64,000 nucleotides of DNA from Lepraria neglecta (lineage: Eukaryota; Ascomycota; Lecanoromycetes; Lecanorales; Stereocaulaceae), in contig CM065649.1 of assembly GCA_033220425.1 (NCBI GenBank), forward strand, positions 2,666,001 through 2,730,000. The letters are read 5' to 3'. Positions 2,006 through 51,412 of this stretch are shown here, piece by piece. The notes beneath the pieces were generated by a model that saw only the letters and a program-made list of their open reading frames with translations, did no database searches and was not told the origin of the DNA. Both the position numbers and the translations under genes were made by a program. Each line of letters opens with the position of its first letter. The stretch's first letter is position 1.

Positions 2006-5000
2006 TCAAGAGTTAAACTGATCCGAGGTGAACCGCTCCCACTTCGCAAACCACTGATCCAGCGCGCTCGTGCGCATATCTCCATATTTCCACCAGACGA
2101 TAGGATAGTAAAGCACCGGTCCCTGAATTGCCTTCAACTCAGCAGCAGTACGACAAGGTAACTGCACCCCATTCTGATAAGCAGCACGTATACTAATCAA
2201 ATAGTACCCCTTCGCCTGAAACCCAGTGAGGTCCAATTGAGCCCTCCATCTCCGGGAAGCAGCGTCGTACACGAAAGGAATCATTTTGTTGACGTCCGGC
2301 GCATCTGTCTCAATTCCGATAGTCAGGAATAGCGGCTTAATGAGTTGCTTCTCAAAGACATGAGGGCAGGAGCCGGCGAATGAAAAGTTGACAACACCAA
2401 CACTGGTAGCTTTGATTGTGAAGGGCGCGGGCTCGATGGTTGATCTTTCGATGAATTGTGTTTTCGCGGGGTCGCCGAACATAGCTGCATCGCCGCTCCA
2501 GAATGCTTCTCTGGATATCTGCGGGTCGACGTGTTGTTGATAGGGGTTATTTGGGAAGTGATCGCGTAGGAACTCCCTGTTACCTGTAAATTTCGGGGTC
2601 AGTATTGGTCTTTGCAGCAAGAAACAAGAGTTAGAGCGAGGGTATCAAATAGTGTATTAGAGCAGGATTCTTGCCAAGGCACAAGTCTTGGGTTAAGTAT
2701 TAGCCGAACTCAAGACTCCCTCGGGTCAAGATTTGGGGTTCAAGAAGCTGTCGGAGAGCAGAGTTCGTGCAGGAAAGTACGTCTCAGGAGCAGTGGATTC
2801 ATCAGTCACTGCTCCTGGAACGTGTCTTTTGCCACGTGAGTCGCTTCGAGGCAGCTTTGATTCTGCATTCTCTGCTCCTGAGACATGAATTTCAAGGACA
2901 AGGACTCCCAGATAGCCTTTCATGCCGCATGCTCTTCTTCTGAGACTTGCCTATTCACACATTTCTGGGTCATCGAAAGTCAATGCTGACTCTGACATCC
3001 GCAGGTTGGAGCAGCGTTCGGCGCCAGTGCCGCGTTTCCAAGAAATAAATCTTGGTCAAACACTAGTCTCAGGAGCGAGATCCATGGTACGAAGGCGTTC
3101 TTAGAGCAGAATTAATGCTAGGAAACTAGTTCCACGAGCGACGATTGAACGACAGTGGGGGTTGTTAACCTGAAAAGTGTACTTACTCATGGTAAAGTAG
3201 AGCGGGTAGATGCTCGGTTCAGCCGCTACAGCTGCATTGTTGTTGCTTGGAAACTGACCAGCTGTCGCATCTGGATCCGAACCGGCAGCCCAACATGGGT
3301 CAATAACCTTCATCGTTGGTTCGTCGTCATCAGAAAGAGCGAAGGCGCTCCAGGCATGTCCTCGTTTAGGTTCATCCTGTTTCTTTGTGCCCTTCTTTGT
3401 TTTTCCGCCGATATACTGGCCCTGGTACATTGTTGGGGTGGTCCCGCGGAGGTCTGTTGTGTTGAACATCTGACGGAAAAGCTCAGTGTAACCTCCACAA
3501 ATCTCCATGCCAGTCGTTACGGTATCAGCTGTCGGCCTCGTCTTCTTCTCGATGCCCTCAGCGTTCTTAGCTTTTAAATCCATGTCGTATCGAATAGAGT
3601 ATGCAACCTACCCAAATTTCGGAGTCAGCATATCAATTCTTGGACAGAAGGAAGAGTTGTGAGACATAATTAGGGAGTACAGCCTGAGCCATAGCTCCCG
3701 CAATGGGTCTCAGGACTCAGACAATGGTCCCAATAGGAAAGACAACGCTCGGAAAATTACGTACCCAAGAGAAGAAGAGCCTGGCCCTAGCGACATGGTC
3801 ACTGGGATCAATGCCTGCCACTGCGACAAACTTCGTAAAGAGTGCTAATGCCATGTAATCGACTTGCTTGTTGCGGAGCTTGATAAATGGTGCTGCTTTG
3901 GCCACTGCATCATCATAGAGCTTCTTCTTGGCATCACGGTCGGTATTAAGAGCATTCAACTGTTTTTGCTTCGGTTCCAATTTTACATTGATCTTATCCA
4001 CCTGCAGTTTTTGGAGTCAGCAATGCTTTTTGAAGAGCCATATTTCAGCCAAAACATAAGTCTCAGGAGCGAGAAATAGAATACAGAAGGCTGTCTGGGA
4101 CTAGAATCGTGCCAAACAAGCGCGTTTCAGGGGCAGAATCTGGGCCAAGATTCAAGCTTAAGGAGCAAACAACAGCAGACAAAATTTTGCCCGGGTGTAC
4201 AATCCGTGCCAAAAGGTATGTCTTGGGAGCAACAAATGGACAGATTGGTTGGGCTTTGACTCCAAAGAGTGCACTTACAGCCGCTTGAAGTTTCTTTATG
4301 TCATCCCCAGTGGTCTTAGAAGACTGGCTAGCTAGGGCATTGACCGCAGCGAATTGCTCTTGCTTGAGAGATGAGACCTCTCCATCTAGAGGTTTGATCT
4401 GGTCATCCACCGCTTTGACTGCATCATTGTACTTGTTGACTGCGAAGATTGTGGAGTCAGCTTTGCTCTGTAAGCATGCAAAACTCTGTTGCGAAACATT
4501 TTTAGGGAGTATAGCCTAAGAAATTACTTCGGTGACAACTCTGGGGAGCACCACAGCGTTCGTAATCGGGGAAGAACGACACCGTAATGTACGTACCATT
4601 GTCGGCGAGCGGAGCGTATGCAGCCTGGATCTCAACAAGATGAAGCTTGATGGTCTTACCAGCAGCATCATCTTGTGCAATATCATTACCAACTCTTTGG
4701 ACCTGATTTTGCAGTGCATTTTGATCAGCTTTGGCAAGATGGTACTCCTCAGACAGTTTTCCAAGGTCGTGTAGAAGCTTTGTTGCATCAAAGGCTAGAT
4801 TTGAAGGGTTGTTTCCCCGGCTTTCGGGAGTCCCTGCGGAGACTACGCCCGCACTGTGAATAGTCCAAAGGTTTTGAAGCCGGCAGTCTTTGGCGAATTG
4901 ATCGATGATGGTGTAATCCTGACAGACAAGGCAGTTGTGTTCCGTTGTTTGCGAGAAGTTGTATCCTAACGGGAGTGGGTTGACAGGGTTCAATGGAATG

Positions 5001-5095
5001 GTCGTTCCTCCAGCAGATGAAGGCGGTGGTCCAGGATTGACATCGACATTTGTCTTTGCTGGGGTCTTGCTGGCAGAGGAGGAGGATGATGCCAT
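2006..5095 (-). CDS. transglutaminase-like (KY/Cyk3-type) cysteine-peptidase-fold protein
   Basis: Five exons on the minus strand: 4597-5095, 4279-4439, 3765-4001, 3187-3607 and 2006-2583. They join in phase to 1896 nt, 631 aa. Residues 1-50 are low complexity (Ser, Pro, Gly). Residues about 90-260 are charged and helical with coiled-coil character. The transglutaminase-like core follows: ARLFFSWV then VAYSIRYD, then a catalytic triad candidate of Cys in MEICGGYTELF, His in GHAWSAF and Asp in VIDPCWAAG. The C-terminal exon begins with HFPNNPYQQHVDPQISREAFW-like sequence, matching the linker after the core in KY and Cyk3-like proteins, and ends in a beta-rich segment. Proteins of this class act in septum and cytoskeleton organisation; the role here is inferred only. 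The start is the first ATG of a clean frame. All four introns are unusual: lengths 157, 277, 157 and 603 nt, mutually related, and annotated separately. The coding frame is intact despite a decayed neighbourhood. Confidence 0.75.
2785..2817. repeat. 11-bp perfect inverted repeat
   Basis: CAGGAGCAGTG at 2785-2795 and its exact reverse complement at 2807-2817 with an 11-nt loop. It marks the point where the 64-bp repeat units in intron 4 change orientation. Confidence 0.7.
2836..3004 (+). repeat. probable nested introner-like element in antisense to intron 4
   Basis: Reads as an intron on the plus strand: GTGAGT at 2836, AATGCTGACTCTGACATC then GCAG ending at 3004, about 169 nt. The end has the family branch motif TGCTGACTC, and sense-orientation repeat words (GCTCCTGAGAC near 2873, TTCTGAGACTT near 2938) lie inside. 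It sits within intron 4 of a minus-strand gene, so it would be removed with it. The left limit is less sure than the right. Confidence 0.45.
3608..3764 (-). repeat. introner-like element 3 (intron 3, 157 nt)
   Basis: Donor GTACGTAA, branch GCTGACTCCGAAATTT, acceptor GGGTAG. It is the gapless homologue of intron 1 in the same gene. It also aligns along its length with the intron at 50061-50216 in an unrelated gene on the other strand. It contains a single trace of the 64-bp unit (GTCTCAGGA on the plus strand). Confidence 0.75.
4002..4278 (-). repeat. introner-like element 2 (intron 2, 277 nt) with internal 64-bp repeat
   Basis: Donor GTAAGTGCACTCTTT, branch GCTGACTCC, acceptor CTGCAG. The interior is a degenerate tandem repeat. 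On the plus strand the word GTCTCAGGAGC or a close variant recurs at 4060, 4124, 4156 and 4220, giving a 64-bp period with a 32-bp half period. It is accompanied by CGTGCCAAA and ATGGACAGATTG. The 3' end matches introns 1 and 3; the 5' end matches intron 4 (GTAAGTRCACTYTT). Confidence 0.7.
4440..4596 (-). repeat. introner-like element 1 (intron 1, 157 nt)
   Basis: Intron 1 of the transglutaminase-like gene. Donor GTACGTAC, branch region GCTGACTCC about 20 nt before the acceptor, acceptor CGCAG. It has the same length as intron 3 and aligns with it without gaps; by hand count a little over half of all positions match. The best core, read on the plus strand, is TTAGGGAGTAYAGCCTRAG at the same offset in both. 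Neighbouring short introns elsewhere in the window do not share this sequence. Confidence 0.75.
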
Positions 5096-5899
5096 GTCGT
5101 ACGATTGGATGGTCGAACGGATTCTTTCAGCTTGTGAAATTAAGGGAGCCCAATGAGTTATTTCTGAAGGTTTAGAAGTCCAGTCAATGGTACAGAAAAG
5201 GGTAATGAGCCACAGTGATTTGTTCAGATAAGAGTTGACTGAAAAAATTCTGTTTGAAAAAGCGTTTATTTCGATCTAGAGAACGGTGAATGGAAGGAAA
5301 AGTCATCCCAACAGCGAAAAGTGCTGGCTTTTATAGATGTCTCCTACCTTGATGGATCTTCTGGCTTCACCTTAGATTCACAATCGATGCCGTTGCTTAC
5401 CTTGCATACGCCAGTAATACGATGGATGAACAAGTCACAGTACAGTCAGGCTTTTGTGGCTGAGCTAGAAGCTTGTCATAGAACGATTTGGAAGCTTTTG
5501 CAATGAATGCAACAGTGACGGTGGCTTGGAGAGGTAGAAGTTCCTAATCGTGGTTAGCAGTTGCATCTTTCAACAGCTACTCGAGAACTATCCCATGCTG
5601 CAACCAGAACCATTGATGCGAGCCACGCGATTTCGCCGTTAGTCGAGCTCCTAAGATCTTGTGTGCCCATTGTGACGAGGAAGTTGCAAACATCTTTGGC
5701 GGCTTGGGACGGATAAATATACCAAACCAGGCTAGCGGCTTCGCCTAAGGCTACCCGATTAGGCAGTCCTTGCCGGCTGCAAACCACCTAATTTGCGTTC
5801 TGTATTTAACAAGAACATGCAAACGAGTCAATTGAACCATTCTATGGTGGGCGCAAAGGCCTTCGAAGTTTCTAGAGCGTAGACTCGTTCCTCGGAAGA
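5096..5899. other. intergenic, upstream of the transglutaminase-like gene
   Basis: About 800 bp between the minus-strand start at 5095 and the SDR relic. It must hold the promoter of the minus-strand gene; I see no clear TATA box. A minus-strand frame at about 5554-5787 (77 codons, containing GTQDLRSSTNGEIAWLASM) looks protein-like but I do not recognise it. It could be a gene fragment. Confidence 0.4.
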
Positions 5900-6655
5900 A
5901 TGCCAAATATGCTCGTCGTTGGCGCAGCTTCAGGCATTGGGAAAGCCTTCGTTTGTACATACCTCCTGAGTCCCGACGACCACGTCATTGCTGCCGACCT
6001 AGCATTCGGCAACTCTTGTCAAGTGCACTCAAGGATGACTGTCGGGGTGACGTTTGCAGTAATGCGAAAGGCGAGCTCTCCCTTGTATATCCCATCGATA
6101 TATCAATGCAGAGAGATTGCTATGGGCTCGCCATACGTGTGGAGGACCTTGATGTTATAGTACACAGCGCCGGTATAAGAGGCCTCGAGCCAGATATACC
6201 TATTAGTAAGACCTCTGACGTTGCGAAAGCAGAGACCAAGGATGTGACGACCGTAGAAACACTCTAGCATACATTCCATGTGAACGCCATCGGCACCTTT
6301 CTGCTCCTCGAGGCTATGATACCACAATTGCGCCATGATGGGCATCCGAAAGTAATCATCATGGGCTCGCGAATGGGTTCAATCGGCCATAACACAACCG
6401 GTGGCGCGTATGCATATCGAGCGTCGAAAGCTGCGCTTAACGCCATCGTGAAGTTATTTTCTGTAGGATGTGCCGGAAGTGGTATTTGCAATTGTGCATA
6501 CTGACCAGGTTAAAAATGGGCTGGTGAGTGTGAAGGAGGATGAGGCAATTAGTGCTGAGGAGAGCGTTAGCGACATGTTGAAGTTGATTGAGAGACTGGG
6601 GAAAGAAGATTTAGCGAAGTTTATGGATCGATTTGGGGTGGAGGTGCCGTGGTAA
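5900..6655 (+). pseudogene. short-chain dehydrogenase/reductase, broken
   Basis: SDR enzymes are NAD(P)-dependent oxidoreductases with a Rossmann fold. Seen in order: MPNMLVVGAASGIGKAF with the cofactor motif GxxxGIG, AADL, DLDVIVHSAGI (NAG-like), FHVNAIGTFLLLEAMIPQL, IMGSRMGSIG with the catalytic Ser, and AYRASKAALN with Tyr-x-x-x-Lys. The C-terminal block, SAEESVSDMLKLIE to VEVPW, is typical of the small C-factor/sniffer-like SDRs. The frame changes once near 6000-6040 and again near 6460-6480, and there is an in-frame TAG at 6265-6267 just before HTFHVNAIG. Apart from these it would be a normal-length protein of about 250 aa. Confidence 0.8.
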
Positions 6656-6955
6656 AAGGCTGGCTGAAAGCGGAGTTCGTGCCAAAAGACCGTTTGGAAG
6701 TAGACTTCTTTTCAGGAAACACATCATTGGAGCTGAATACGTGTCACAAAAGATCGCCCCAAAGCAGAGCTCTTGCCAGGAGACGAGTCTCAAGAATGAG
6801 AAACACGGGTCTAGAAGCTGTCTGTAAGCAACAATTTTGCTCAGTGATATGTTTGAGAAGGACAACACGGGGGAATAGAAGCCCGCCAGGAAGCTGGATT
6901 CGTATCAGAAAGAATGTCTCGGGAGCGTTGTATGGACAGATTGAAAGCTGATTGG
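6656..6955 (-). repeat. free array of the 64-bp introner repeat
   Basis: Starts directly after the stop codon of the SDR relic. Words of the family recur: CGGAGTTCGTGCCAAAAGAC at 6671, then GTCTCAAGAA at 6787, GTTTGAGAAGG at 6851, GTCTCGGGAGC at 6917, and TATGGACAGATTG near 6931. The spacing is 64-66 bp. The orientation is the same as in introns 2 and 4 (sense on minus). I find no branch or acceptor motif, so it does not look like an intron here. Confidence 0.6.
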
Positions 6956-8824: not shown

Positions 8825-8835
8825 GCGTGTAAGCT

Positions 8836-36352: not shown

Positions 36353-39300
36353 CTACCAATCAATACCCCCATTCCCACCAGCAGTAATCTCGTGCGCAGC
36401 CCTAACCTCACCAGCGCCCTCCTTGAAATGGCTATCCTGGAAAGGCTTCCTCCCCTTCATACCCTTAAGCTTCTCGTCCAACTTACCAAATTGTCCGTTG
36501 GTTTCGCCTGCCTTGACTTTCCATTGGCTGGTACCGAGTCTGGCATCAAGCTCGTCGATTGGGGGAAGTTTGAGGTACACCCATCCATCCCCCTTTTCCT
36601 CAACGGGGAAGACGGCGATGTTGACTTCGGCGTCATTACTACATTTGCCCGCATCGTCGCCGTTGAGCGTGAAGTTCTTCTTGTGGAAGGGGCAGGAAAC
36701 CCAGAGTTTGTCTGTTTTGGCGTCATCGCCTAGAAGGCCTTCGGAAAGGGCGAATGTGCGTTTGTGGGGGCACATTTGTTGCGAGGCGTACCACTTCCCC
36801 TTGATTTTGAAGACAGCGAGCTGAGTGTCTCCGCGCTTGACGTTCTTAGAGCTACCGGTAGGCGTATCAACGAAGTGTTTCGCTTCGATAATCGGCTGCC
36901 ATGTCAAGCTCGACCATTTCGTGCCGCGGAAGTCCTCGGTAACAGATTCTTTAGGCCAGTAAGCGGGGTGTTGTTGACCGCGCACATCAACGGGCTCGAC
37001 GACGGAGAGCGTATCTTCTGTGTTGCCGAATTGTTTGAAGTGGCTACGTCGGGTGGGGTCGTTGATTGCTTCTGTCCATTCGCAGAAGAACGTCCCGACG
37101 AGTTCGTTCATTTGTTTTTCGAGCTCGGCTGCTATGCCGAGTTTGTCTTCGAGAACGACTTCGCGAAGATATTTGATGCCGCCGGGAAGTTGCTCGACCC
37201 AGCGCGCTGTGCGTTGGAGTTTGTCTGCTGTGCGGATGTAGAACATGAGGTAGCGGTCAAGGATGGGAATGACATCGTCGGGTGGTACGTCTTTGGCAAG
37301 GAGTTCGCTATGCCTAGGCTTCGCGCCGCCATTGCCACCGACGAAGACATTGAAGCCCTTCTCTGTGGCAATGAGACCGAAATCCTTATTTTGCGCCTCA
37401 GCGCACTCACGAACGCAGCCAGACACGCCGCCTTTCATTTTGTGTGGGGAGCGGATCGACTTGTAGCGTTCTTCGAGGCGGACGGCCATGCCTACGCTGT
37501 CGCCGATGCCGAAACGACACCAGGTTGTGCCGACGCAGGATTTGACAGTTCGCAAGGATTTGGCGTATGCGTGGCCGGATTCCATGCCTGCATTTACGAG
37601 TGCGGTCCAGATGTCGATGAGATCTTCTTTCTTGGCGCCGAACATGTCGATGCGTTGACCGCCGGTGATTTTGCAGTAGAGGTTGTATTTTTTGGCTACG
37701 GTTCCGATGACGATGAGTTTTTCGGGTGTAATTTCTCCGGCTGCTACTCTTGGAATGACCGAGAAGGTGCCGTTGCGTTGGATGTTGGCTAGAAATCTGT
37801 CGTTGGTATCTTGAAGGCCGTGTAATGGCTTGTCTATTATGTGCTGATTGTAAAGGGATGCAAGGATGGACCCCACGGCTGGTTTGCAGGCTTCGCAGCC
37901 CAAAGAGTCTTGATCCTTCCCACACTCCTTCATGATCTCTGGGAACGACTTCAATTTCTTGACGTAGATGATGTTGAAGAGATCGGCTCGTGAATAGGCG
38001 AAATGAGGACACAGGTGATTGAGCACTTCACTTCCCTGTGCTTTCATCTCCGTATTGAAGATTGTCTGAACCAAAGGCATACAGCCACCGCAGCCCGTGC
38101 CAGCCTTGGTGCATGATTTGACGTCCCCAATACTCTTGCATGTCCCATCCTTGACGGTTTTCGCTATATCTCCTTTAGTCACATTATGGCACGAGCAAAC
38201 CTGCGTGTCATCTGTCAAATCATTTGCGTCGTCTTCACCGTCCTTAGTGGCTCCCAGGATAAATTGGCTTGGCGGTACTTCTAAGGCTGTTTGGTTCTTG
38301 ACCATCGGTACCAATTTGACGTAGTCTTTAGTGTCACCAATCATCATACCGCCCAATAAGTGCTTGCCATCCAATGTGAAGAGGTACTTCTTGTACACAG
38401 CCTGGAATGGATCTTTATAAGTCAAAGCTTTCACTGGCGGCGGCGGTGGGCCATCGGTGATATTCTTCACCCTCTCTTCTGCTCCTTCTTTCACCTCCTT
38501 TTTAGCTCCATGTCTCTTGACTGGTAGCTCCTTAGGCCCGTCCCGGTCTGCGAAGAAGTCCCCGAAACTGGCAACTTCCACGCCGAGTAACTTCAACTTT
38601 GTACTTAGGTCGGGCCTCTTGAATTTTCTTGGAGCATGGACCTTTGCTTGTGTCATGTTGAAGGCAAGGACTTCCGCCATCTCGATTCCGGGCGCGATTA
38701 AGCCAAAGGTCTGACTTTCCCAGCTGGCACACTCCCCAATGGCATAAATGCCGTCTTCGCTTGTCTTGAGGCTCGGGTCAATGACGATACCTCCGCCTCT
38801 GTCGGCACACTTGATTCCAGATCGTCTGGCAAGCTCATCTCGAGCTTTAATGCCAATGCCGAACATTAGACATTTGCAATCCATCCTTTCTCCGTCCTCA
38901 AACTGTACCCCTTTGACGGCATTGTCCTCATTCACCTCAATCTTGCCGACTCTTTTGCTGAGGAGCACGTCCAGTCCTAATTTTGACACAAGGTCTACTA
39001 CCATACTGCCAGCATCGCTGTCAAGCTGACGGCTGAGGACCCATCGATTTCGCTCGATGAGCTTGACCTGGCCGAAGCTTTCGAGGTCCATCATTGCCTT
39101 TGCTGCTTCCAGTCCTAGCAGACCTCCACCCACCACAGCACCCGTGCTGCCTTTGCAAGTCTCTGAGTATCTAATTAGCTTTTCTAGGTCTTCGATGGTA
39201 CGGTAGACAAAGACCCCTTTTGCGTCATGTCCAGGTGTGTGCCGCGGCAGAAGTGCATCAGAGCCGGTAGCGAGGACAAGGATATCGTAAGGGACAGTCT

Positions 39301-39837
39301 CGCCCGTAGATGTGGATACGACTTTGTCTTTGGGATGTATATCTGTGACCGTGGTATTGAGGTGGTAATTGAGAGATCCTTCAGGCATTCCGGAATACTG
39401 CACGAATTCTACTGTCAGTGGATAGTCTGTGGACTCGTCATAGACGGGCATGACGTACCCATTCCTTTGGATTCAAGTACAAGTTTTCAGCTTTCCGATG
39501 CTGGAAGAAGCTTGTCAACCCGACTCGATTGTATGCTAGATGCGCCTCCTCTCCTATGACCACCACATCGTATTCCCTTCTCCTTGCGTCCATCTTCAGG
39601 AGCTTTTCACTACTCAGGGCAGCCATCAGCAGTTGCTACAATGGCTTTGAAATGGGTAGTAAGAACTGGCGGTAGAACTCACATGAATGCAATGCCCACC
39701 ATGCCTAGTCCTACGACAACGACCTTCGTCCTCTGTCCCTTGGGCCTTGGATATCGTGCTACATTCTCTTCTGGATCATGACCATTGACGGGCACCTTGC
39801 CGGCCTGCATGCTAGGCGAGGACTCTGCCCAAGACAT
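36353..39837 (-). CDS. niiA: assimilatory nitrite reductase [NAD(P)H]
   Basis: Reduces nitrite to ammonium in the cytosol, the second step of nitrate assimilation. Three exons: 39683-39837, 39459-39612 and 36353-39397, joining in phase to 1117 aa, the usual length. Domain order: a FAD/NAD(P) fold with [14 protein letters not shown], then DVVVIGEE and [17 protein letters not shown], up to about residue 400. A BFD-type [2Fe-2S] site follows ([10 protein letters not shown], then GCGGCMP). The siroheme/[4Fe-4S] half domains carry [15 protein letters not shown] and [14 protein letters not shown] (about 760-820). The C-terminal Rieske-type [2Fe-2S] domain has CPHKRTFA and SCPFHKKNF. The start ATG gives [19 protein letters not shown]. 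It is divergent from niaD, sharing the 1.6 kb promoter to its right, so co-induction by nitrate and repression by ammonium are expected. No defect seen. Confidence 0.96.
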
Positions 39838-40560
39838 CTTGAAGGTATTAATTCAAGTAGCTCGAGTGGCAGTCCGAATGCCAGGTTAGTAGCACTGCAG
39901 TCAGTCTTCGAGAACGCGGTATCGTACAGCTAAGCAGACACCATGTGGAGTTACAGACAGCACAATCGCGACTGAGAATTGAGAAAAAAGAATGGGATCT
40001 CAATCAAGACATCGACAGAGGCAAATTAAGAGGCTAGGAAATGCATAAGCATAGAAAGCTCCTGGAGCTCACTGATGCACTCCCCACCAGAGCCCGCGGG
40101 CAACGCCACATGCTTCATGGCGGAAACTTATCGCGGTGCATGGTGAGGCTCTTGGCCATACAAGATGGGCTTTTAGGAATTGCAAAAGGCAATTGATGAG
40201 CTTCTCCTCGGGCCCGTTGGATTTCGTGGTTGATGTCTGCCCGCTATTGCTGAATGCGGCGTGGAAAGATAAGAGATGCGGGTTTGATACGTCGTGGAGA
40301 GATAAAGCTGGACGCGCTAAGCCATTAGGAGCTAATTCCCCGGATCACAGGGACTCGTCCTCGTCTTTGGTGAGACTTCGACGTCAAACCACAAGAAAGG
40401 TCTTTACTTTTTTTGATCCACCGGACGAAAGAATGGTGTAGTAGGCTACTTGCAGCACTTGCAGCAAGAGTGGCACTCACTGGGCTTCTGGCTCCGGAGA
40501 AGACCAGCAAAGCAGAGATCCGCGGACTTTCCCTACAGCTCGCGTGCTGGCGTGAACTCC

Positions 40561-40832
40561 CTCGGTGTCGTAAAAATAAACTGGGCCCCCACCAAATAAT
40601 CGAGTTTAAGGCCCACCCCACCAAAATTACGCCTATACATCCTCAAATCGACCCAAATTACTGCTAGACTCGGTGGCAATTTGAAGCTATACAAAATGGT
40701 AAATTTGATGGTAGATTTCATTTGTATGGATGGCATAATAGTGTGCTTTTGGCGGTGGTGGAGTGGAAAAAGTGGTTCAGGGGCAGACCTCGCTTATTTG
40801 GTGGGGGCCCAGTTTATTTTTACGACACCGAG
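40561..40832. mobile_element. fold-back MITE in the nitrate promoter
   Basis: 272 bp. Terminal inverted repeats of 39 bp (40561-40599 and 40794-40832), beginning CTCGGTGTCGTAAAAATAAA, are exact reverse complements. ACTCC at 40556-40560 and again at 40833-40837 looks like a 5-bp target-site duplication. The interior also folds back imperfectly (AAATT-GATGGT against its complement), so almost the whole element is one palindrome. There is no open frame, so it is a non-autonomous DNA element. Perfect TIRs suggest a young insertion. The parent superfamily is not identifiable from this copy, and I see no other copy in the window. Confidence 0.9.
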
Positions 40833-41149
40833 ACTCCTTACTGAAGCATATAAATTCCGAGGCTTCTTGCTCAATGCCGAGACAGGCACCACCATCCCCG
40901 GAGAGATCTGACGGGCTCGATTAGCACTAGTGACCATGTGTTGTGTATATGGCCGTGGCAGTCAATTTTGGTTTCCGCTGCTTCCAACCGAAGCCTGCCT
41001 CCTCCGGGTTTTAGGTACACACCGCTTATCAACGACGCTAATGGATAAGGATTTCAATGATGACTTTACGTCTAATTTGTGGCCTCTTGGCTCGAAGAAA
41101 GGCTGATGCAAGCAGGAATATTGCGGGAAATTTTCCACTGTTGACGTAC

Positions 41150-41157
41150 CTCCGCGG
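41150..41157 (+). promoter_or_regulatory. NirA-type binding site CTCCGCGG
   Basis: Exact match to the CTCCGHGG consensus known from Aspergillus niiA-niaD, 295 bp upstream of the niaD ATG. Confidence 0.55.
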
Positions 41158-41451
41158 ACTACTGTTCAGCTACTATTCATGACCATGGGCTGGCATTGTC
41201 CGACCTCATTGGGTACAAGCCTCGCTTGAACCCATTGTCTGAAGTTAGTACAACGAGAATCGTGATTTCACTTGTGCCTATCAAAATATCATTGGCTTCA
41301 TGCTAACGTAGCATGCGGTGCCTTGTGGAACATGGCAGGCGCGCTGGGTAAAATAGTTTAACACCCTCCTTTAATGGCATACGTATATGCCGTTTCATCA
41401 CCACGTCTCTATACTTTCCATGTATATATATACTTTTTACACATTCACATA

Positions 41452-44176
41452 ATGGAGGATCCAGCTCAAGACAGACATTCCCGAAGCATCGTTGAGAAAC
41501 ACGAAGAACTACCGCCATCCCCGGCCCAGACTGAAGAGAATGACTCCGAGTCCAGCGAAGAAGTCGATATCCCACTGCCACCACCTACCACCATACCCAC
41601 AGAGACCCTCGACGTTGACAAGAAGACCCCAGACGCTCACGTACCCCGAGATCCCAGGCTAATACGATTGACTGGAGTTCACCCTTTCAACGTCGAAGCA
41701 CCCCTATCAGCACTATTCAACGAAGGCTTCTTGACCAGTGCCGAGCTATTCTACGTCCGAAACCATGGTGCTGTGCCCAAAGTCAAAGACGAGGAAATCC
41801 CGGATTGGGAATTCTCAGTGGAAGGGTTTCTCGATGCTACACCCCCACCACCAGTGTCAATTGACTGACATGGACAATGACAGGCTCGTCCGAAAGCCCC
41901 TCACCCTCACCCTTCGCCAGCTCATCGCCGAGTATGAGCAGATCACCTGTCCCATAACACTTGTCTGCGCAGGCAACAGAAGAAAAGAGCAGAATCAAGT
42001 CAGGAAAAGCAAAGGGTTCTCATGGGGACCAGCTGGTGTGTCCACGGCACTCTTCACAGGCGTTGCCATGTCAGAGTTGATAAAGAGAGCTCGCCCGAAG
42101 AAAAAGGCGAGATACGTGTGCATGGAAGGCGCGGACAAGCTTGTATGGTAATCTAATAAGTGGGGACGAGACCTACCGTTGGCTGACATTGGGTAGCCCA
42201 ACGGATTCTACGGCACATCGGTCAAGCTCAACTGGGTCATGGACCCCAATAAAGGCATGATGCTGTCATACAAAATGAACGGCGAGATGTTGCGACCCGA
42301 TCATGGCAAACCCTTGCGAGCCGTCATACCTGGACAAATTGGAGGACGCAGTGTGAAGTGGCTGAAGAAGCTGATAGTCACTGCAGCCCCGAGCGACAAT
42401 TGGTACCATATCTACGACAACCGAGTGTTACCTACTATGGTCAGTCCTGACGAGTCTGCGAATGATCCCAAATGGTGGATGGACGATAGATACGCTATAT
42501 ACGATTTAAGCACCAACTCAGCCATTGCATACCCCGCACATGAGGAGCAGGCTTGCTTAGTCGGTGGACCAGAGAAATACCGAGCCAAAGGCTATGCTTA
42601 CGGCGGTGGCGGAAGAAGAGTTACCAGAGTCGAGCTCTCACTCGATAAAGGCCGGACGTGGCGATTGGCTAACATCGACTACCCTGAAGATAGATATCGA
42701 GACGCCGAGCAGATTTTGTATGGAGGGCGCCTCGATATGTCGTGGAGGGAAAGCTGCTTCTGCTGGTGTCAATGGTCCTTGGATTTTCGAGTCTCTGAGC
42801 TGGCAGATGCCAAAGATATCGTCGTAAGAGCAATGGACGAGAGTATGAATATACAGCCGAAGGAAATGTACTGGAGCGTCCTCGGCATGATGAACAACCC
42901 CTGGTTTCGCGTCACTATAAGCAAGGAAGGCGACTACCTCCGCTTCGAGCACCCAACACAACCAGCACTAATGCCCGGAGGTTGGATGGAACGGGTCAAA
43001 AAAGCCGGAGGTAACCTAATGAACGGCCAGTGGGGCGAAAAGCTTGCAGGCGAAGAAGTACAAACTGCCTTTCAAGAGGTAGCAAAAGAAGTCCCCATGA
43101 CAAAACCAGATCTCAAACACGAAATTACGATTGACGAATTACGAAAACATGACAATGACACCGACCCCTGGTTTGTCGTAAACAATGAAGTCTACTCCGG
43201 CACCGCATTCCTCAAAGACCACCCTGGCGGCGCCCAGTCCATCGTTTCGGCCGCCGGCCTCGACACCACGGACGAGTTCATGGCCATCCACTCCGAAACC
43301 GCAAAAGCAATGATGCCAACCTACCACCTCGGCACCCTCGACTCTGCCGCTAAAATCGCCCTCTCAGAACCGCAATCCGAGACCGCCTCGAACGAGCCCC
43401 GCGATACCTTCCTCAACCCCAGATCCTGGACTAAAGCAGTCCTTTCCTCCAAGAAAAAGATATCCGCAGACACCGTCATCTTCACCTTCACCCTCGAGCA
43501 CAAGACTCAAATGCTCGGCCTTCCCGTAGGCCAACATCTAATGATCCGGCTCCGGGACCCCGTCCAGCGCGAAGCCATCATACGACCATACACACCCATC
43601 TCCGAAATGAATTCCAAAGGCCGCCTCGACGTGTTGATAAAACTCTACCTCGAAGGTGATATAGGCGGGAAGATGAGCAAGGCGATGAACTCCCTCCCCG
43701 TCGGCCACGGCGTGGACTTTAAGGGACCAATTGGGAAGTTTACGTACTTGGGGAAGGGACTTTGCTCCATTAATGGTACCGAGAAGAAGGTGAAGAAATT
43801 TGCTATGATCTGTGGTGGCTCGGGAATCACGCCCATCTTCCAGGTCTTCCGCGCTGTGATGCGCGACAAGGACGATCCTACGACTTGTACGGTGCTCAAT
43901 GGGAACCGCCTCTTTGAAGACATATTATGTAAGGAAGACTTGGATGCGTTGCTAACGGGTAACGAAGACCGAGGGGAGGTCATCCACACCCTGACCAAAG
44001 CCCCTGAGACGTGGAAAGGGCTCCGAGGCCGCATCAACGGCGAGCTTGTGCAAAAGCATTGTGAGTGCCATGAAGAGACGCTGGTGCTAGTTTGTGGGCC
44101 GGAAGCGCTGGAGAAGAGTATTCATGTTGCGCTCAAGGAGCAGGGGTGGAGTGATGATCAGATTTTATTCTTCTGA
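41452..44176 (+). CDS. niaD: assimilatory nitrate reductase [NADPH]
   Basis: Reduces nitrate to nitrite; cytosolic molybdenum enzyme. Three exons: 41452-41825, 41884-42142 and 42197-44176, joining in phase to 870 aa, as in other ascomycetes. An acidic, Pro-rich leader (MEDPAQDRHSRSIVEKHEEL) is followed by the molybdopterin domain (FYVRNHGAVP; VCAGNRRKEQN with the Mo-ligand Cys; GFSWGPAGVST; CMEGADKL) and the dimerisation domain up to about residue 490. The cytochrome b5 domain has haem ligands in LKDHPGGAQS and AIHSETAK (about 530-600). The FAD domain has RPYTPIS, and the NADPH domain has GGSGITPIFQ and VCGPEALEKS. The C-terminus is DDQILFF. I chose the ATG at 41452; a more upstream in-frame ATG lies in the leader at 41374 but gives no homologous sequence. 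No defect seen. Confidence 0.96.
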
Positions 44177-44766
44177 TGTAGGATTGTTTGGATATGGTAA
44201 TTTGATTATCTTACTGGATATGGACATGGCAGCTTGACGAAAAAGGGTTTACAGGTACATAGCGTTTGGGTATCTGGGTTCTACTGGGTTGGGTTTTGGT
44301 TTGTCGAGTAGATAGGGGTACATATGCTTGAGTGTGAGAAGCCTTGGATGGCGGTATATATACGACAAATGGATTGATAAATGGTTGATGTGGATAAAGC
44401 AAATGGTAGAGATTTCGAATTCATTGTGACCATGTACTTGCATAGGCTGTCTGTCATTGAGGCTACATTCGTTAGCATCATCACGAGTGGGCAGGTCTTG
44501 GGACGTATGGATGGGTGAAACATAAATGGTCATGATGAGAGGATGAAGTTCATTTGATTATGCACATACTAAGGTAGCTCGATGATCTCCGTTAGCTGTC
44601 TCCACGCTTCAATGTTAATGCTTGCTCTGTGAAAAGGAATCTCGTTATGCATCATCAATTCATATCTTCATTCCCATCATCCCTGGCATAACACAGCTAC
44701 GGCATCCGAAGTTCTGAAGGTCTGTCAAGTCATGTAATGATCACGAACCTACCTACTCGTGATGCC
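44177..44766. other. intergenic between converging niaD and FAD-oxidase genes
   Basis: About 590 bp between two converging 3' ends. AT-rich, with no gene or repeat seen. Confidence 0.5.
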
Positions 44767-46511
44767 TCAATTCCCAATAGACTGGGGATTCCAGAACACA
44801 TGCCCCGGATCCACAACCTGCTTAATGGCAAGGAGCTTAGCGTACATGTCAGCACCATAGTACAACGTGTGGGCCTGCGCAGCGGTCAAGCTCGGATCCA
44901 CATAGATCAGATACGCGCCGAATGTCGTGTCCGGCATCGCACTCGTTATTGCAGTGTTGAGTCCGTTAATGAAATTGAGGGTGCGGGGTGGGAATGGATC
45001 AGTAGTTTCCGTCGTGTCGCCATAGTGTTGCAGCACCCATAGCGCGGTGCGATCACTGTAGGCAGACGAGGACGGCGAAGGAACATTGATCTTGCTATCC
45101 GGGCCGCCGTAAAGGTTGATGATGCTGAACCAAGGGCTTGGCAGGTTGACGCCGTTTTCACTTATGTAGCTGAAGTAGCTGTTCAGGGCATCTGTGGTTA
45201 GAGGAGCGGACGAAGGCACAACGAGGCTTTTTGCGAAGAAGTCGTCGTGGAGATTGTAGCCTAGGGTTGGTTGCTGGAGAGTGTTTGGGGAGGCGAGGAG
45301 GGAAAGGGAGGTGATCCAGTCTACGGCTTGGATGGATGAGGAAGAGGGAGTAGGCAGGCCGCTGAGTAGAGCGAGGGCGATGGCATTGGTAAAGGTTTCG
45401 AGGTCACCGAGATATGTCCCAGAGATAGAGAAAGATTGGCCATCGAGGTGGACGCCGAAGCCAAGTTTGCCGTCGACGACGGATGCGTTGAGGGCGAAGT
45501 TCTGGATGTGCGTGAAGGCTGCTGTGGGGGCAGCGGCTGAATTGTACATGCCTGGAAGGGTGTAGGCCCAGTTGACAACTGAAGCTGGGGATGGCTGGGT
45601 CTGTAGGTGAAAGGTTGTGATTATGCCGAAGGAGTCAGCAGCGCCGCGGAGGGCGTAGCAGATGTCTGGGTATGTCGTCTCGGTAGCGTGGATGAAGCTA
45701 CCGTTGGCGAGTACGACGTCGAGAGCAACAATCGTATCCAGCGTAATGCCCCATAGTCGAGAGGTGTAGCCAAATCCTCCATGACTCGCATGACCGCCGA
45801 TGCCAATTCCTGGACTGGTTCCATGGGGCAGAGCACGCTGAGATTGGTTGTAGATAGCCAATACCATATCCCCCAGTCTAACGCCTCCACCGATTTGTGC
45901 AATCCCGCTCTCATCGACACTGATATCTTGGACATTTTCGAGGTCAATCACCATGCTCCCGTCCTGACCTCCGCTGCTGAAGCTCGCGTAGGAGTGGCCA
46001 CCGCTCTTGGCTTGAAATTTGACATTGTTCTGAGCGGCGCAGAGCACAGCATTCGCGATGTCCTGCGTGGATGTTGGGAGAACGATCACTGCTGGGATGT
46101 GTTGCAGGCGCAGATTGAAAGGTTCAGCGAGCTGCCCGAAGGCTGAAGAGGGAGCGTAGACGGTGGGAACATTCTTGGCGGCTAAGCAGTCTAGCAAAGC
46201 TGTAGAGGGAGGCGAGTTGCATTTGCCGAATGCAGGCTGACATCCAGTGATGCAGTAGTCTTCTGATGAACCACTATGAGAAGGCATCAGTAGCTGTTTC
46301 AGCAGTGGGGTCTTGAGACTTACCAGTAGCCATATTGACTGCAACATTCTCCGGTTGGACAGGTGTTTCCATTGGTGCCCCCACAAGTCTCATCAGGTGA
46401 CACAACTCTCTTGGTCAGGGTTTGCAAGACATCGTTAGCTTTGGGTTCGAAGAAGGGATTGGCAATGGCTGTAGCGGTCAAAGTGAGCAGGGTTAGGAAG
46501 TAGTAATGCAT
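44767..46511 (-). CDS. secreted FAD-linked oligosaccharide oxidase with N-terminal chitin-binding module
   Basis: Berberine-bridge/vanillyl-alcohol-oxidase-type flavoenzyme, probably oxidising (chito)oligosaccharides outside the cell. Two exons (46324-46511 and 44767-46273), 564 aa. The signal peptide is MHYYFLTLLTLTATAIA. A CBM18-type chitin-binding domain follows: CGGTNGNTCPTGECCSQYGY joined across the intron to CGSSEDYC. The FAD-binding domain has IPAVIVLPTSTQDIANAV, KSGGHSYASFSSGG (His for covalent flavin) and HGTSPGIGIGGHASHGGFG. In glucooligosaccharide and chitooligosaccharide oxidases the second covalent link is a Cys in HGTCP; here it is Ser. The BBE motif at the end (VDPGHVFWNPQSIG) is intact. 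The CBM18 suggests chitin as target. The frame is clean and the gene looks functional. Confidence 0.88.
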
Positions 46512-47407
46512 TCTGAACGGGACTGAAGCACATTTGCTTCAATGAGAGAAGATAGGAAGAATGCAGCTAAGGCAATGTCTGGAGGACCCAGCTCATCATA
46601 ACGATCTTGCTCGGACATAGGCAGCAGGAAAGCCAAGAAGAATGGCGCCATCATAAGACTACTGTACGGAGCTATACGAGACATTCAGGGCTATGCTACC
46701 CTAGCATTGGTTATTGTTGTAAGCCGTGACATGAAGTGACATGAGGTCCTTGGAGATGGTCAGCAAGGGAAAGTGAAGGCTGATCGGGCTCGTCCCCTAG
46801 ATTTCTTGGCAACCCGGGAACTAGTTAGAAAGAGGACTCGCCTTCCCGATATCCCTGTCATTCATCCTCAAGCTCCTCCACCGCCTTCTGCTCCATGTCG
46901 CAGCCTCAACTGCTTCTGATGTGGACTTTTCAGCAGAATCCTGGTTGTCTGAAACCCCAACCGGTGCTCTAAACTACCATGTTCCATCATCGATTGGCCA
47001 TTCTGCAGCTAGAGACAGCGCTCCGCGCAGTGGTAGACTCATGTCTTTCTTTTACAGTCGTCTATTGCCTTGCGCCTGCTTGCGCTAGCGGACTCGTCTT
47101 CTCTCTCTATAGAATACGCATAATCCATAGCCTTCGCGATTTAGGCGCCTAGGCATGATTCGATGGCTACGCGCTTCTGGCTGCCATGCGCTTACCTGCG
47201 TTTCAGCTTCTCGATGTATAATCACCATGTCGCTGCCCTTCAGTGTTTTCAAATTCTCTGCGAAAGCTAAGAATCCTCCCCGAATCTTTCTGTTTCGGTC
47301 AACCCGAAAATTTCCTCCTTGAACTTCCTATTGTGCTCAACGGTTCCTTTAGGAAGCGTGCGTTTCATCATCAGAGCCTCGGACATTATTGGGCGTTTCT
47401 TACAAGG
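46512..47407. other. intergenic between two divergent secreted-protein genes
   Basis: About 900 bp, a shared upstream region for the FAD oxidase (minus) and the metallopeptidase-like gene (plus). Short frames in it have no recognisable content. CT-rich near 46860-46900 and 47090-47110. Confidence 0.45.
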
Positions 47408-48537
47408 ATGTTCAAATTCGTCAATCAAAGTTTTGCTGTCGTCATGGCTCAGTTTGTTCTTGCATCGGCTTTGCCTGCATCCTCTGGTACGTGCCCAAGC
47501 CTCGTTAACGCTAGTACTGATTAGACTGACCGAATCCAAGGCCTCACTTCAGACAAAATAATGCTCGGCAACAGCACTGTCTCTGAGGCCACAAATTCCA
47601 CAAATCTTACGAATCCTGACCGCGAGCCGTATGTACACGGCTGTATTTTTACTACTGCGATAGTTGAGCATGCATATTACCTCGCGAAAGGTGCTGTGAA
47701 TGTAGCCAGAAACGACGTGGATCATGGCCTCTATAGCACGCACGGATTCAAGGCATTATTCAAAGATGCAAGCTCAGTATACCCCATCAAATACTATCTT
47801 AACAACATGTACGACTACAAAGGGATGATGGGCCTCAAGCCTTCTCCGACAATGTTTCTCAGGCCGAATCTCGTCTGCGTAACGGCGACGACATACATCC
47901 ATTACAAAGGCCTACGGTTGGGGTACGACCCGTGGGTGAGATGTCAACATCCATATCTAGCGGGGCAGCCTCCGCAAGCATTCTACGCCGAGGGAACCGC
48001 ATTTATATTTCTCTGTCCGGGCTTTCTTACGCAATCCCCAGTACCGGCGCCTCATAATTGCCCGGAAGTCATGCACAATACGTGGGTAGGAAACGCCGAT
48101 ATCTTTTACCGGAATTACCAAGTCTACACGCTTCTTTACGAGCTTATTCGCTTCTACCTTGGACCCAACGCCCTTAGCCCGTACACACTGCCAAGCGAAC
48201 AGTTCGAATGGAACTCTTGTGTTTACTATAGCGCCGTACCATCGGTGAAAAACCCAACAAATTTGCTCCTCTATGTGGCCTGTAAGTTCATTCTAGGAAA
48301 TCATGTTCTTCCTCATCCTACTCTAGAACGGGGGTTGTGGTTGGGATTCCTGCTGACTAAAGTGATGGATGTTCAGTGGCGAAGCAACAATGCACGGCAG
48401 CGCCCGACCCTGACAAACCACCTTTCTCTCCACCTAGGCTAACACAGACGCCTGCAGCTTTAGATAATGGGACTCTAACTTTGCCAGAGACACTAGCACC
48501 ATTCAACGCGACGGCTTTAGATGCTGCCACTTCTTGA
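47408..48537 (+). CDS. secreted metallopeptidase-like protein lacking the zinc motif
   Basis: Three exons (47408-47486, 47541-48281 and 48377-48537) join in phase to 326 aa. The start MFKFVNQSFAVVMAQFVLAS with LPASS after it is a signal peptide, followed by an Asn/Thr-rich, glycosylation-prone linker (LGNSTVSEATNSTNLTN). The body has paired cysteines (HGCIFTT, LVCVTAT, RCQHPY, LCPGF, HNCPEV, WNSCVYY, KQQC). The block YTLLYELIRFYLGPNALSP lies where deuterolysin or M35-like fungal secreted proteins carry LLHELVHFYLG. The HExxH is thus replaced by YELIR, so both zinc histidines are gone. The C-terminus is Pro/Thr-rich. It probably has a binding or decoy role rather than catalysis; this is inferred. 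The reading frame is intact. Confidence 0.65.
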
Positions 48538-48702
48538 GGTCTTTCTCTGTTATATCTTCTTTTGGAAGCAGTGGCACCAATCCTCACTACGAGGAGAAAA
48601 AAATATGAGCCAACATATCAGATCTTCATTGACCACCGCTCGTCACTCATTACCAAAAATTTAAAGGGTTAACTATAGTAAGACTAAATGGGCGAATTCC
48701 AC

Positions 48703-49311
48703 CTAATTAGGTTCCTGGCAATACCTAGCTAGAAGCATAAGACCCTTCTTGACGTACTCATCATCATTCCAAAACTCGTTCGGCAAAACGCCCAGTCTTA
48801 CAAGCATAAGCCTCATTGTGTTGATCTTGAGATTATCAAAGCTTCTCAGTACACCATTATCGAGATTCTCCGAAGAGGTGTTTTTGCCTAAAGATTTTGA
48901 CCGTCTAGGCCTATCAAAGCATCTGAATTCAATCGGGGTTGCCTGCATGCTACGTTATCCAATACTGTCGTACACTCATCTTTCCCCAAGCAGCCAAAAC
49001 TCGGGATACCATCAGAGCTTCGCCTTGACATCCCCTCCAGTAAACGGTTCCATAATCCGGCTTCTCTCTCTCATTCGCACCAACGCCTTCGCCGACGTCA
49101 ACTTCGTCAACTCCCTAACATCCGCCCCCTTCTCCCTCAACCCCTCAAACTCAACCACCACGCCCCGGCTCTCAATCTCATTAGCATTATAAACAAACCG
49201 CCGAAAAGCCCTTGCCCAACTATCCAAGCATCTCACAGAGTGCGGCCAATCATGCCATAGATAAGCCCGTGCATGCGCCCTTTGCGGTTTCTCAGATCTT
49301 CCACAGCACAT
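48703..49311 (-). pseudogene. unrecognised decayed coding fragment
   Basis: Minus-strand frames give protein-like sequence (WPHSVRCLDSWARAFRRFVY, then ELTKLTSAKALVRMRERSRI, and in another frame NTMRLMLVRLGVLPNEFWND and DEYVKKGLMLLARYCQEP). I do not recognise a family. The pieces lie in different frames with stops between them, so this is probably a broken gene. Confidence 0.4.
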
Positions 49312-49331
49312 TCGCTCTTAACATTTACATC

Positions 49332-51412
49332 ATGGCTGGGGGCAATCTCATTACCGGAACGACTGACACGTCGCGCATTGAGGCGCTCGCCACTATCAAA
49401 GCCTACATAATATGTGCTTTCGCTGCTTTCGGCAGCATTTTCTTCGGCTATGATACTGCCATCCCTACCTGATCCCAACGATGCAATCATCGTAGCAAAT
49501 TTCCATCTCACTGCGCGAGATTAATCATTAACAACATCGGTTCTCTCAGCCGGTACTTTCTTTGGGACTATTATTGCGGGAGACGTTGCGGACTTCGTTG
49601 GACGCCGCATTACCATTATTGCCGGTTGCTTTATCTTTTTCATTGGGTGCGTTCTTGAAACTGCTTCCACTGGTCGCCCTGTCACGGTATTTGGTCGCGT
49701 GATTGCAGGTTTCGGGGTTGGGTTTATCTCTGCCATTGTTATACTCTACATGTTGGTAAGTAAACTTGGCTTATACACTCCGACTGCCTTTTAGGTGGCC
49801 TTCGGCCATGGCTTTACTAAAGCCAAGCCACTTAGGAAATCTCCCCCAAGAAGGTCCGCGGCGCGCTCGTGGCTAGTTATCAATTCTGTATCACAATCGG
49901 TATTCTTCTGGCAAATTGTGTCTGCTACGCTACTCAGAATCGCGACGACACTGGGTCTTATCGGATTCCGATTGCAATTCAGTTCTTGTGGGCTATAATC
50001 CTAGCGACCGAGCTATTCCTCCTTCCTGAGTCCCCACGATATATTGTCAAGAAAGGCAAGATACGTCTTTTCGGAGCTCGTTCTCTCCCTCTGAGATTTT
50101 CTTTGAAGTCGAAAGACATGTTTCAGGAGCATCTGCTCCTGATATACTCTCTTGGCATGTCTCGCGACTCGTTAGACATTTCAGAAATGCACTGCTGACT
50201 CTGGAACGATGAATAGTTAGAGCGGGCTGTACAGGCTTTAGGCTTTGTTCGTGGACAGCCGATTGAGTCCAATTATTTTCAAGACGAGCTTGCTGAGATT
50301 ATCGCTAATCACGAGTACGAGCAACAAGTCATTCCGCAAACAAGCTACCTAGGTGGCTAGGCCAATTGTTTCAAAGGCTGTCTTCGAAGACGGCAGTAGT
50401 TGCCGATGTGCTAAAGTTGGTTTGTAACATCCTTAATCCTTTTAATATTTGGAGCCTAGCTAACTGTCTCTTACTATCTTAGGTATATTTGTGCAGATAT
50501 GCAGCAGCTAACCAGGATTAACTTTATATTCTACTTCTGAGCAATCTTCTTCACGAGCTTGGGTACTATCAAGAATGTTTTTCTAATCGTCTTGACTACT
50601 ATGCTCTGTAATGTGTGTTCTACGCCCGTATCTTTCTAACTGATTGAGAAGTTCGGTCGACGCAAGATCCTTGTTCTCGGCGACTCAGGCATGGTCGTCT
50701 CTCAATTTATTGTCGCTATCATCGGCGCCACTGCGAGTATGTACTTTCCCAATGCTTTATTCCGATTCATGTGGTATTTTTCGCGAGCACTTCAACTTTT
50801 TAATCATCAAAAAAGAATTCTCACTGTTCAAACGTGGTCTAAGAGAAACGCTGACTTCGAAAACTCAATCAGGTATAACATCCGCCCACAATACCGCCGC
50901 TATCTCCGCTGTAATCCCTTTCATCTGCCTCAACATGTCCTGATTCGCCATGACATTGGGGTACTTCAGCCTGGGTAGTCGTCGGCGATATCTTCCCTCT
51001 CCCCATCCGTTCCCGAGGTGTCGGTCTATCCACTGCATCAAATTGGTTCTGGAACTGCGTATGCCACCCCAACCTCATATCCCCTGGGCCCCCTCCTTCC
51101 CACTTGACTAACAAACCACCACAAATCCAGATCATCGCAGTGATAACCCCCTACTTAGTCGGCACAGCCAAAGGCGATGCCGATCTCGGCGCCAAAGTCA
51201 TCTTCCTCTGGGGCTCGCTCTGCTGCTTATCCCTCATGTTTGCGTACTTTTTAGTTCCTGAGATGAAGGGGCTTTCGCTCGAGCAGATTGATAGGACGCT
51301 GGAGGAGACTACGCCGAGGAAATCGAGCAAGTGAATGCCATATTCTATCTTTGCGAAGGATATGGGGATGACTAGGAAGGGCATTGTGCTTGAGAATGAG
51401 AAGACGGAGTGA
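49332..51412 (+). pseudogene. MFS hexose/quinate-type sugar transporter, broken
   Basis: Sugar porters import hexoses through 12 membrane helices. The start MAGGNLITGTTDTSR leads into ICAFAAFGSIFFGYDTA. LSAGTFFGTIIAGDVADFVG with RRITIIAGC follows, then GRPVTVFGRVIAGFGVGFIS, KVRGALVASYQFCITIGILL, FLLPESPRYIVKKGK, LERAVQALGFVRGQP, QDELAEIIANHEYE, FIVAIIGATA and the C-terminal VPEMKGLSLEQIDRTLEET. Many breaks: a TGA after FGYDTAIPT, frame changes near 49500, 49800, 50370 and 50800, and stops near 50535. A 156-nt intron at 50061-50216 belongs to the introner-like family. Full-length relatives are about 530 aa. Confidence 0.8.
50061..50216 (+). repeat. introner-like element 5, in a transporter pseudogene
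   Basis: Splits the codons exactly between VKKGK and LERAVQALG of the transporter, which are adjacent in relatives. Length 156 nt. It begins ATACGTC, one transition from the GTACGT donor, and ends TGCTGACTC plus GGAACGATGAATAG. Over its whole length it aligns with intron 3 of the transglutaminase-like gene: TACGT, TTTTC-GAGC, ATACTCTCT against GTACTCCCT, ATGTCTCGCGACTC against ATGTCTCACAACTC, and TGCTGACTC. Confidence 0.75.

What the first reader, a model, noticed from the sequence alone, without database searches (positions are those of the whole stretch)
3608..50216. Introner-like elements: near-identical-length introns shared by two unrelated genes
Introns 1 (4440-4596) and 3 (3608-3764) of the transglutaminase-like gene are both exactly 157 nt and align without gaps from donor to acceptor, with a little over half of positions equal by hand count. 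A 156-nt intron at 50061-50216 in a hexose transporter pseudogene on the opposite strand aligns with them end to end. Ordinary introns of unrelated genes do not share sequence. Introner-like elements are known in some Dothideomycetes; this would be a family in this genome.
Basis: partly seen in the sequence, partly recalled or inferred. Interest (0 to 1): 0.92.

Follow-up and report, generated by a model that had tools for sequence, protein, structure and literature searches.

The report
Spreading introns in a lichen fungus
Introns in unrelated genes of this lichen-type fungus are copies of a few self-spreading sequences that appear to drop into genes and be spliced back out, and relatives lack them at the sites checked, so they offer a view of how new introns are born.

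Summary
The two 157-nt introns and the 156-nt one are diverged copies of one family: intron 3 alone finds 31 places in the 42-Mb genome, itself included, E 1.1e-8 or better, on seven contigs. Sister families (B, C, thinner D-F) share the 3' module GCTGACTCCGAAA; 137 copies of A-C lie in the 229 kb fetched. Similarity ends at the splice sites and the reading frame agrees only if the copy is removed. Orthologues lack the introns: 119 of 120 listed AlkA relatives cross the site without gap, while the closest (93%) ends with a 15-residue tail that is the introner read through. P0241, a relative of the window gene, crosses all four of its intron sites. The host is a lecanoromycete. No target-site duplication was found; consensus copies fold into hairpins that decay without covariation. 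Introner-like elements are a known kind; I found none reported in lichen fungi. Reverse splicing is likeliest but inferred; no RNA data.

The parts
4440..4596 (-). Intron 1 of the window gene: diverged family A introner, 157 nt, phase 1 after residue 166
   Evidence: 122.8 bits with the family model it helped to build; 2 other genome matches by blastn; 1 of 1 homologue reaching the site crosses it without gap
3608..3764 (-). Intron 3: family A introner, 157 nt, phase 0 after residue 299
   Evidence: 31 genome places incl. itself; 88% identical to the typed family consensus; 3 of 3 homologues cross the site without gap
4002..4278 (-). Intron 2: long introner-like intron (family F), 277 nt, phase 0 after residue 220, inverted repeats near both ends
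   Evidence: one other genome copy, 70% over 4-278 of 278; arms 4003-4019/4257-4273 88% complementary; 2 of 2 homologues reaching the site cross it without gap
2584..3186 (-). Intron 4: 603 nt, introner-type ends (GTAAGTACACTTTTCAGG .. TACTGACCCCGAAATTTACAG) with internal inverted repeats, perhaps nested insertions; phase 1 after residue 439
   Evidence: sequence, spliced frame, repeats; 3 of 3 homologues cross the site without gap
50061..50216 (+). Family A introner in a sugar-transporter pseudogene, donor mutated to AT
   Evidence: 95.9 bits with the model it helped to build; one other match, 75% at C3:3404453; flanking exons open in phase 0 on both sides
50737..50872 (+). Possible further, strongly degenerate introner in the same pseudogene (ends GCTGACTTCGAAAACTCAATCAG)
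   Evidence: 22.9 bits, rough E 8e-4; less stable than shuffles, z 1.62: weak
2006..5095 (-). Host gene, five exons (5095-4597, 4439-4279, 4001-3765, 3607-3187, 2583-2006), 631 aa
   Evidence: spliced translation open to the stop; co-linear with P0241, 66% identity
50001..50060 (+). Sugar-transporter-like exon before the element
   Evidence: translation
50217..50357 (+). Sugar-transporter-like exon after the element
   Evidence: translation in the same phase

Best explanation
These are introner-like elements: spliceosomal introns of about 136-157 nt (some longer) that have multiplied in the genome of a lecanoromycete fungus. Each intact copy carries its own donor (GTACGT or GTAAGC), branch point (CTGAC) and acceptor, lies exactly between two exon bases without a target-site duplication, runs in the sense direction of a gene, and is removed by the spliceosome, so the host protein is unchanged. 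Shown here: one superfamily of sequences with sharp ends at the splice sites in unrelated genes; frame restored only by exact removal; absence at the same sites in relatives (protein evidence) and presence in one close relative; no detectable target-site duplication; a long hairpin in the consensus that decays in the copies. Inferred: that splicing occurs; that the copies spread through RNA (an excised intron reverse-spliced into a transcript or R-loop and fixed in DNA); and that the hairpin served spreading rather than splicing.
For: Ends: 99 of 100 full-length copies GT..AG ('full length' itself favours intact ends); in 77 pairs with element identity 0.80 or more the 50-nt flanks are 0.25 and 0.26 identical. 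Frame: of 23 copies with one open frame on each side 20 share the phase (P 1.6e-7), against 2 of 23 and 3 of 25 with the acceptor moved by 1 or 2; keeping the copy breaks the frame in 20 of 20. Strand: same-phase frame of 100 nt or more on both sides in 32 of 37 sense, 8 of 37 antisense. Exactness: joined exons align without gap at the junction to solved DPP3 and sirtuin structures and, with the split codon as X, to fft3. Gain: AlkA 119 of 120 and DPP3 120 of 120 listed relatives uninterrupted; P0121 tail VRNFRSVVFPIGTIV against VRTFRSVVFPIGTIV from our element; window gene P0241. No TSD signal for k 2-11 over 81 copies.
Against: No RNA data. Copies are moderately diverged (best pairwise 0.91, 0.93, 0.90 within A, B, C), so current activity is not shown; one D pair reaches 95.6%. 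Over 71 places above 25 bits in the first family A scan only 53 were GT..AG, the rest being degenerate, truncated or misplaced ends. The looser frame test is weak: 67 of 73 share a phase against 0.638 expected, and permuted flanks reach 21.5 of 37 on average in the 300-nt test. RNAalifold on the 31-copy alignment found 4 pairs only; single copies fold only moderately better than mononucleotide shuffles (z below -2 in 20 of 49 A, 8 of 20 B, 7 of 12 C, control 4 of 49; intron 1 only -0.56); self-complementarity of single copies exceeds z 3 in 26 of 49, 5 of 20 and 6 of 12. 'No intron' in a relative rests on the inference that those database proteins are plain reading frames; annotated ncbi proteins in the lists do not carry that inference, and the DPP3 search could have missed relatives cut short by the intron because of its length limits. 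The reverse-splicing step is not tested.
Confidence: 0.93

Rival explanations
1. The copies are a non-autonomous DNA transposon (MITE-like) with terminal inverted repeats that happens to be spliced, as in some algal introners.
For: Family A consensus ends pair over 16 bases (GTACGTACATTTCGGAGTC .. GACTCCGAAATGTGCGCAG), and the whole consensus matches its own reverse complement (score 94, highest of 1000 shuffles 40).
Against: No target-site duplication signal at k 2-11 over 81 copies; copy ends coincide with GT and AG; sense excess. No transposase was looked for.
Confidence: 0.2
2. An excised hairpin intron (or its double-stranded copy) is captured at blunt double-strand breaks by end joining, as proposed for symmetrical Hypoxylaceae stwintrons.
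For: Internal symmetry of the consensus, absence of TSD and seamless insertion all fit; the model is in PMC8469720 (passages seen).
Against: Capture at random breaks should also give antisense and intergenic copies and small exon losses; 32 of 37 sense against 8 of 37 antisense and 119 of 119 gapless AlkA junctions argue against, in a sample that is not a census.
Confidence: 0.22
3. Ordinary introns alike by chance, shared splice signals, gene conversion or gene duplication.
For: Fungal introns share short splice motifs (recalled knowledge).
Against: 0 of 500 shuffles reach any of the three pair scores; end-to-end genome hits to 4e-60 with the consensus; flanks of similar copies unrelated; absent in orthologues.
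Confidence: 0.01

Closest known systems
Introner-like elements (ILEs) of Dothideomycetes (van der Burgt 2012, not read, known from citations; Collemare 2015, PMC4457414, parts 1 and 2 of 4 read)
   Same: Canonical spliceosomal introns, similar copies in unrelated genes, several families per genome, decay toward ordinary introns, absent in relatives.
   Different: Other class (Lecanoromycetes); no sequence comparison with their families was made; identity lower than the 98-99% of the families they call likely active, nearer to their inactive Dothistroma case.
Symmetrical sister introns and stwintrons of Hypoxylaceae (PMC8469720 and PMC9024468, passages seen)
   Same: Self-complementary introns with terminal inverted repeats and palindromes, seamless insertion, no flanking duplication, decay of symmetry in divergent copies.
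   Different: Theirs are nested donor-disrupted stwintrons or cropped forms of them, in Sordariomycetes; their palindrome WTTCTAGAAA is not in our three consensuses by eye, where AGACATGTCT occurs in B and C. Nested donor structure was not tested here.
Introners of diverse eukaryotes (Gozashti 2022, PMC9860276, section 8 and passages seen)
   Same: Intron families spread through genes.
   Different: Most families there carry TSD or TIR and are read as DNA transposons; that paper calls ascomycete introners free of both. Here TSD is not found but consensus family A has terminal inverted repeats.

Membership tests
Fungal introner-like elements | Similar introns in many unrelated genes, similarity ending at the splice sites | tested here: met
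Fungal introner-like elements | Hundreds of near-identical copies | tested here: inconclusive
   at least 137 A-C copies in the fetched 229 kb, lower bound; mean identity 0.66-0.74
Fungal introner-like elements | Absent at orthologous sites in relatives (recent gain) | tested here: met
   3 genes, protein-level evidence
Fungal introner-like elements | Predicted stable secondary structure | tested here: inconclusive
   consensus A -59.5, B -37.2, C -68.6 kcal/mol; single copies moderate; RNAalifold 4 pairs
Fungal introner-like elements | No target-site duplication | tested here: met
   81 copies
Fungal introner-like elements | Spliced out of mRNA | not testable with these tools
   frame and protein continuity only
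DNA transposon (MITE-like) | Target-site duplication | tested here: not met
DNA transposon (MITE-like) | Terminal inverted repeats | tested here: inconclusive
   clear in consensus A; ungapped identity of the terminal 19 nt median 0.63 in A, 0.26 in B and C
[D1,2] stwintrons | Internal intron splitting the donor of an external intron | not tested
   -

The most novel reading that the evidence does not exclude
A separate introner invasion in lichen-forming fungi: a superfamily (A-F) built from one palindromic module whose long hairpin was required for RNA-based spreading but not for splicing, so it drops out of selection once a copy has landed. That would make hairpin-bearing, TSD-free introners a general ascomycete mode of intron birth beyond the groups named in the papers seen (Dothideomycetes, Hypoxylaceae and relatives).
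Probability: 0.4. Interest if true: 0.75.

Novelty: new member of a known kind. Interest (0 to 1): 0.62.

Why it matters
Where new spliceosomal introns come from is a long-standing question. Here is a fungal class in which, in the open-licence papers I could search, introners have not been described, with copies of graded divergence, one site seen as occupied in a close relative and empty in the others listed, and a window gene whose four introns all look gained. The lack of covariation in the consensus hairpin suggests a split between 'needed to spread' and 'needed to splice', which can be tested directly.

Tried and rejected
Rejected: chance or duplicated genes. Terminal hairpin kept by selection: paired cells 0.718 against 0.720 with shuffled partners, so not supported. 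Target-site duplication: no signal. Searches with intron 1 or the hexose element alone gave only 3 and 2 places: they are old copies. Long family F: intron 2 has one relative, L118 one partial, so F is thin. Rfam and ARAGORN found nothing in the window. Pfam did not confirm 'transglutaminase'. Rows dropped before counts: places below 25 bits; of the 100 full-length copies the 19 without 99-nt upstream and 58-nt downstream flank; full-length copies without 300-nt flanks in the 37-copy test.
Full report
1. Check. Intron 1 (4440-4596) and intron 3 (3608-3764) are each 157 nt and match at 88 of 157 positions ungapped; the hexose element (50061-50216) is 156 nt and starts AT instead of GT. All three pairwise scores beat 500 of 500 dinucleotide shuffles. 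Intron 2 does so against intron 1, but not against intron 3 or the hexose element (25 and 64 of 500 shuffles reach its local score, with its range one base too long).

2. Genome. The window is G000:C4:2666001-2730000 of a 42.0-Mb, 11-contig genome. Intron 3 as query: 31 places including itself, worst E 1.1e-8, 14 of them over the whole 1-157. Intron 1: 3 places; hexose element: 2 (itself included). The 3' pattern GCTGACTCCGAAATNTNCGYAG with up to 2 mismatches: 48 places, 0 for the reversed control; GCTGACTCCGAAA with up to 1: 240 against 61, 53 of them exact; the 5' pattern with up to 2: 83 against 25, some of the 83 being 3' ends read in reverse, since the ends are inverted repeats. These tools give lower bounds.

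3. Sister families. Of the 53 exact 3' ends I fetched the 35 that were neither among the family A places known by then nor in stretches already held, with four other places. They include family B (about 136 nt), C (about 156 nt), a pair D (95.6% identical), a trio E, and a long, loose F that includes window intron 2; a few fit none well. The B consensus search gave 40 places at E 9e-16 or better, the C search 41 rows, 40 places, at E 6.4e-12 or better; the lists overlap because B and C share their 3' half. Profiles of A, B and C over 228,562 fetched bases find 137 non-overlapping copies (75, 33, 29) at E 1e-6; of 100 full-length ones 99 are GT..AG, a share that is favoured by asking for full length. 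In the earlier, laxer scan 53 of 71 were GT..AG. This is a selected sample, not a census. Some copies lie within 0.6 kb of each other, of different families in some cases (C3:4045063 B and C3:4045606 C; C8:4215023 and C8:4215387 both A).

4. They behave as introns. Similarity stops at the splice sites: in 77 pairs of copies at 0.80 identity or more, 50-nt flanks are 0.25 and 0.26 identical on average, at most 0.42. With one open frame on either side, 20 of 23 share the phase; moving the acceptor by 1 or 2 leaves 2 of 23 and 3 of 25; retention would break the frame in 20 of 20; phases 0, 1, 2 number 8, 5, 7. The looser version of this test is weak, since 99-nt stretches are often open: 67 of 73 share a phase against 0.638 expected. 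In 37 full-length copies with 300-nt flanks a same-phase frame of 100 nt or more is found sense in 32, antisense in 8; permuted pairing gives 21.5 on average, at most 28. Joined exons align without gap at the junction to solved DPP3 and SIRT5-type sequences, and to an fft3 sequence with the split codon as X.

5. They are gained. In the AlkA-type gene (copy at C2:1877470-1877626) 119 of the 120 listed relatives (of 1972 found) cross the junction with no gap within 8 residues; the one exception, P0121, is the closest (93%) and ends there with VRNFRSVVFPIGTIV; our element translates from its first base as VRTFRSVVFPIGTIV followed by a stop. So that relative's protein looks like a plain reading frame running into the same introner. 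If proteins of that source (ena) are called without regard to introns, as this one is, then uninterrupted ones such as P0123 (82%) have no intron there; the step from one protein to the source is inference. In DPP3 120 of the 120 listed (of 3732 found) cross, among them P0088 (87%, ena) and P0001 (84%, jgi); a relative cut at the intron could have fallen out of that search's length limits. For the window gene the search returned only 3 relatives: P0241 (66%, full length, ena) crosses all four junctions without a gap; totals are 1 of 1, 2 of 2, 3 of 3 and 3 of 3 among those that reach introns 1, 2, 3 and 4.

6. Host. The best named relatives of DPP3 and AlkA are lichen-forming fungi: Letharia (75 and 83%), Lecanora helva (74 and 80%), Usnea florida (75%, DPP3), Psora testacea (72%, AlkA). 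Letharia and Psora are Lecanoromycetes by the taxonomy tool; the rest is recalled. Relatives without a species name reach 84-93%. The species of the window is not identified.

7. Anatomy and mechanism. The family A consensus resembles its own reverse complement end to end (94 against at most 40 in 1000 mononucleotide shuffles); its ends pair over 16 bases, taking in the branch-point side. The C consensus folds into a hairpin of about 24 bp holding AGACATGT motifs, -68.6 kcal/mol; B -37.2; A -59.5. In the family A copies the stems decay: terminal-stem cells paired 0.718, with shuffled partners 0.720 (197 of 300 shuffles as high); inner stems 0.727 against 0.723 (42 of 300). Single copies are only moderately more stable than shuffles, and RNAalifold on 31 copies gave 4 pairs. 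I read this as a hairpin that belonged to the spreading element and is not kept for splicing. No TSD signal for 2-11 bases over 81 copies: exact 4-mers 2 against 0.33 expected, all other lengths at or below expectation; the diagonal scan stays below the 95% line of the null except for one 4-base window inside the element's own ends (3.74 against 3.57, null maximum 4.34). Exon base -1 is G or C in 57 of 81, +1 is C in only 5 of 81: a weak preference, not AG|GT. I take reverse splicing of an excised intron into a transcript or R-loop as most likely (about 0.5), break capture and DNA transposition as rivals (about 0.2 each).

8. Known work. Introner-like elements were described in Dothideomycetes (PMC4457414, parts 1-2 of 4 read) and symmetrical introns in Hypoxylaceae (PMC8469720, PMC9024468, passages). 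PMC9860276 (section 8 and passages) states that ascomycete introners have neither TSD nor TIR; its SI was not seen. In the held open-licence library 'introner' with 'lichen' gave 2 papers, on Pleosporales and on a plant; with 'Lecanoromycetes' 0; 'introners' since 2021 15; 'intron gain' with 'lichen-forming' 11; of the last two lists, seen as titles and abstract starts only, none names introners in lichen fungi.

Noticed in passing
2584-3186 (-): Intron 4 (603 nt) holds inverted repeats and an antisense piece like an introner 3' end (2983-2998), as if introners had inserted into an introner.
   Followed up: partly
36356-46386: Nitrite reductase (-) and nitrate reductase (42239-44173, +) genes lie close together, with a BBE-type FAD oxidase (44770-46386, -) beside them and the sugar-transporter pseudogene beyond.
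   Followed up: no
L104, L110: Two introners on C2 and C4 are 95.6% identical over 136 nt (family D), the most similar pair in that comparison.
   Followed up: no
L116 / L163 (C4:4182305-4182414): A family C copy with 96-97% identity to the consensus in two pieces, lacking 44 consensus positions between them.
   Followed up: no
L003:1501-1637 and L007:1501-1657: Some family A copies have lost or shifted ends (GT..AA at C1:5589674; a GTACGTAC just before the aligned start at C7:3139157), likely relics or sliding sites.
   Followed up: no
2006-5095 (-): The host gene of four introners has only three relatives at E 0.001 among the 7996 candidates scored in a 5.8-billion-protein search, and no Pfam family above cut-off.
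   Followed up: partly
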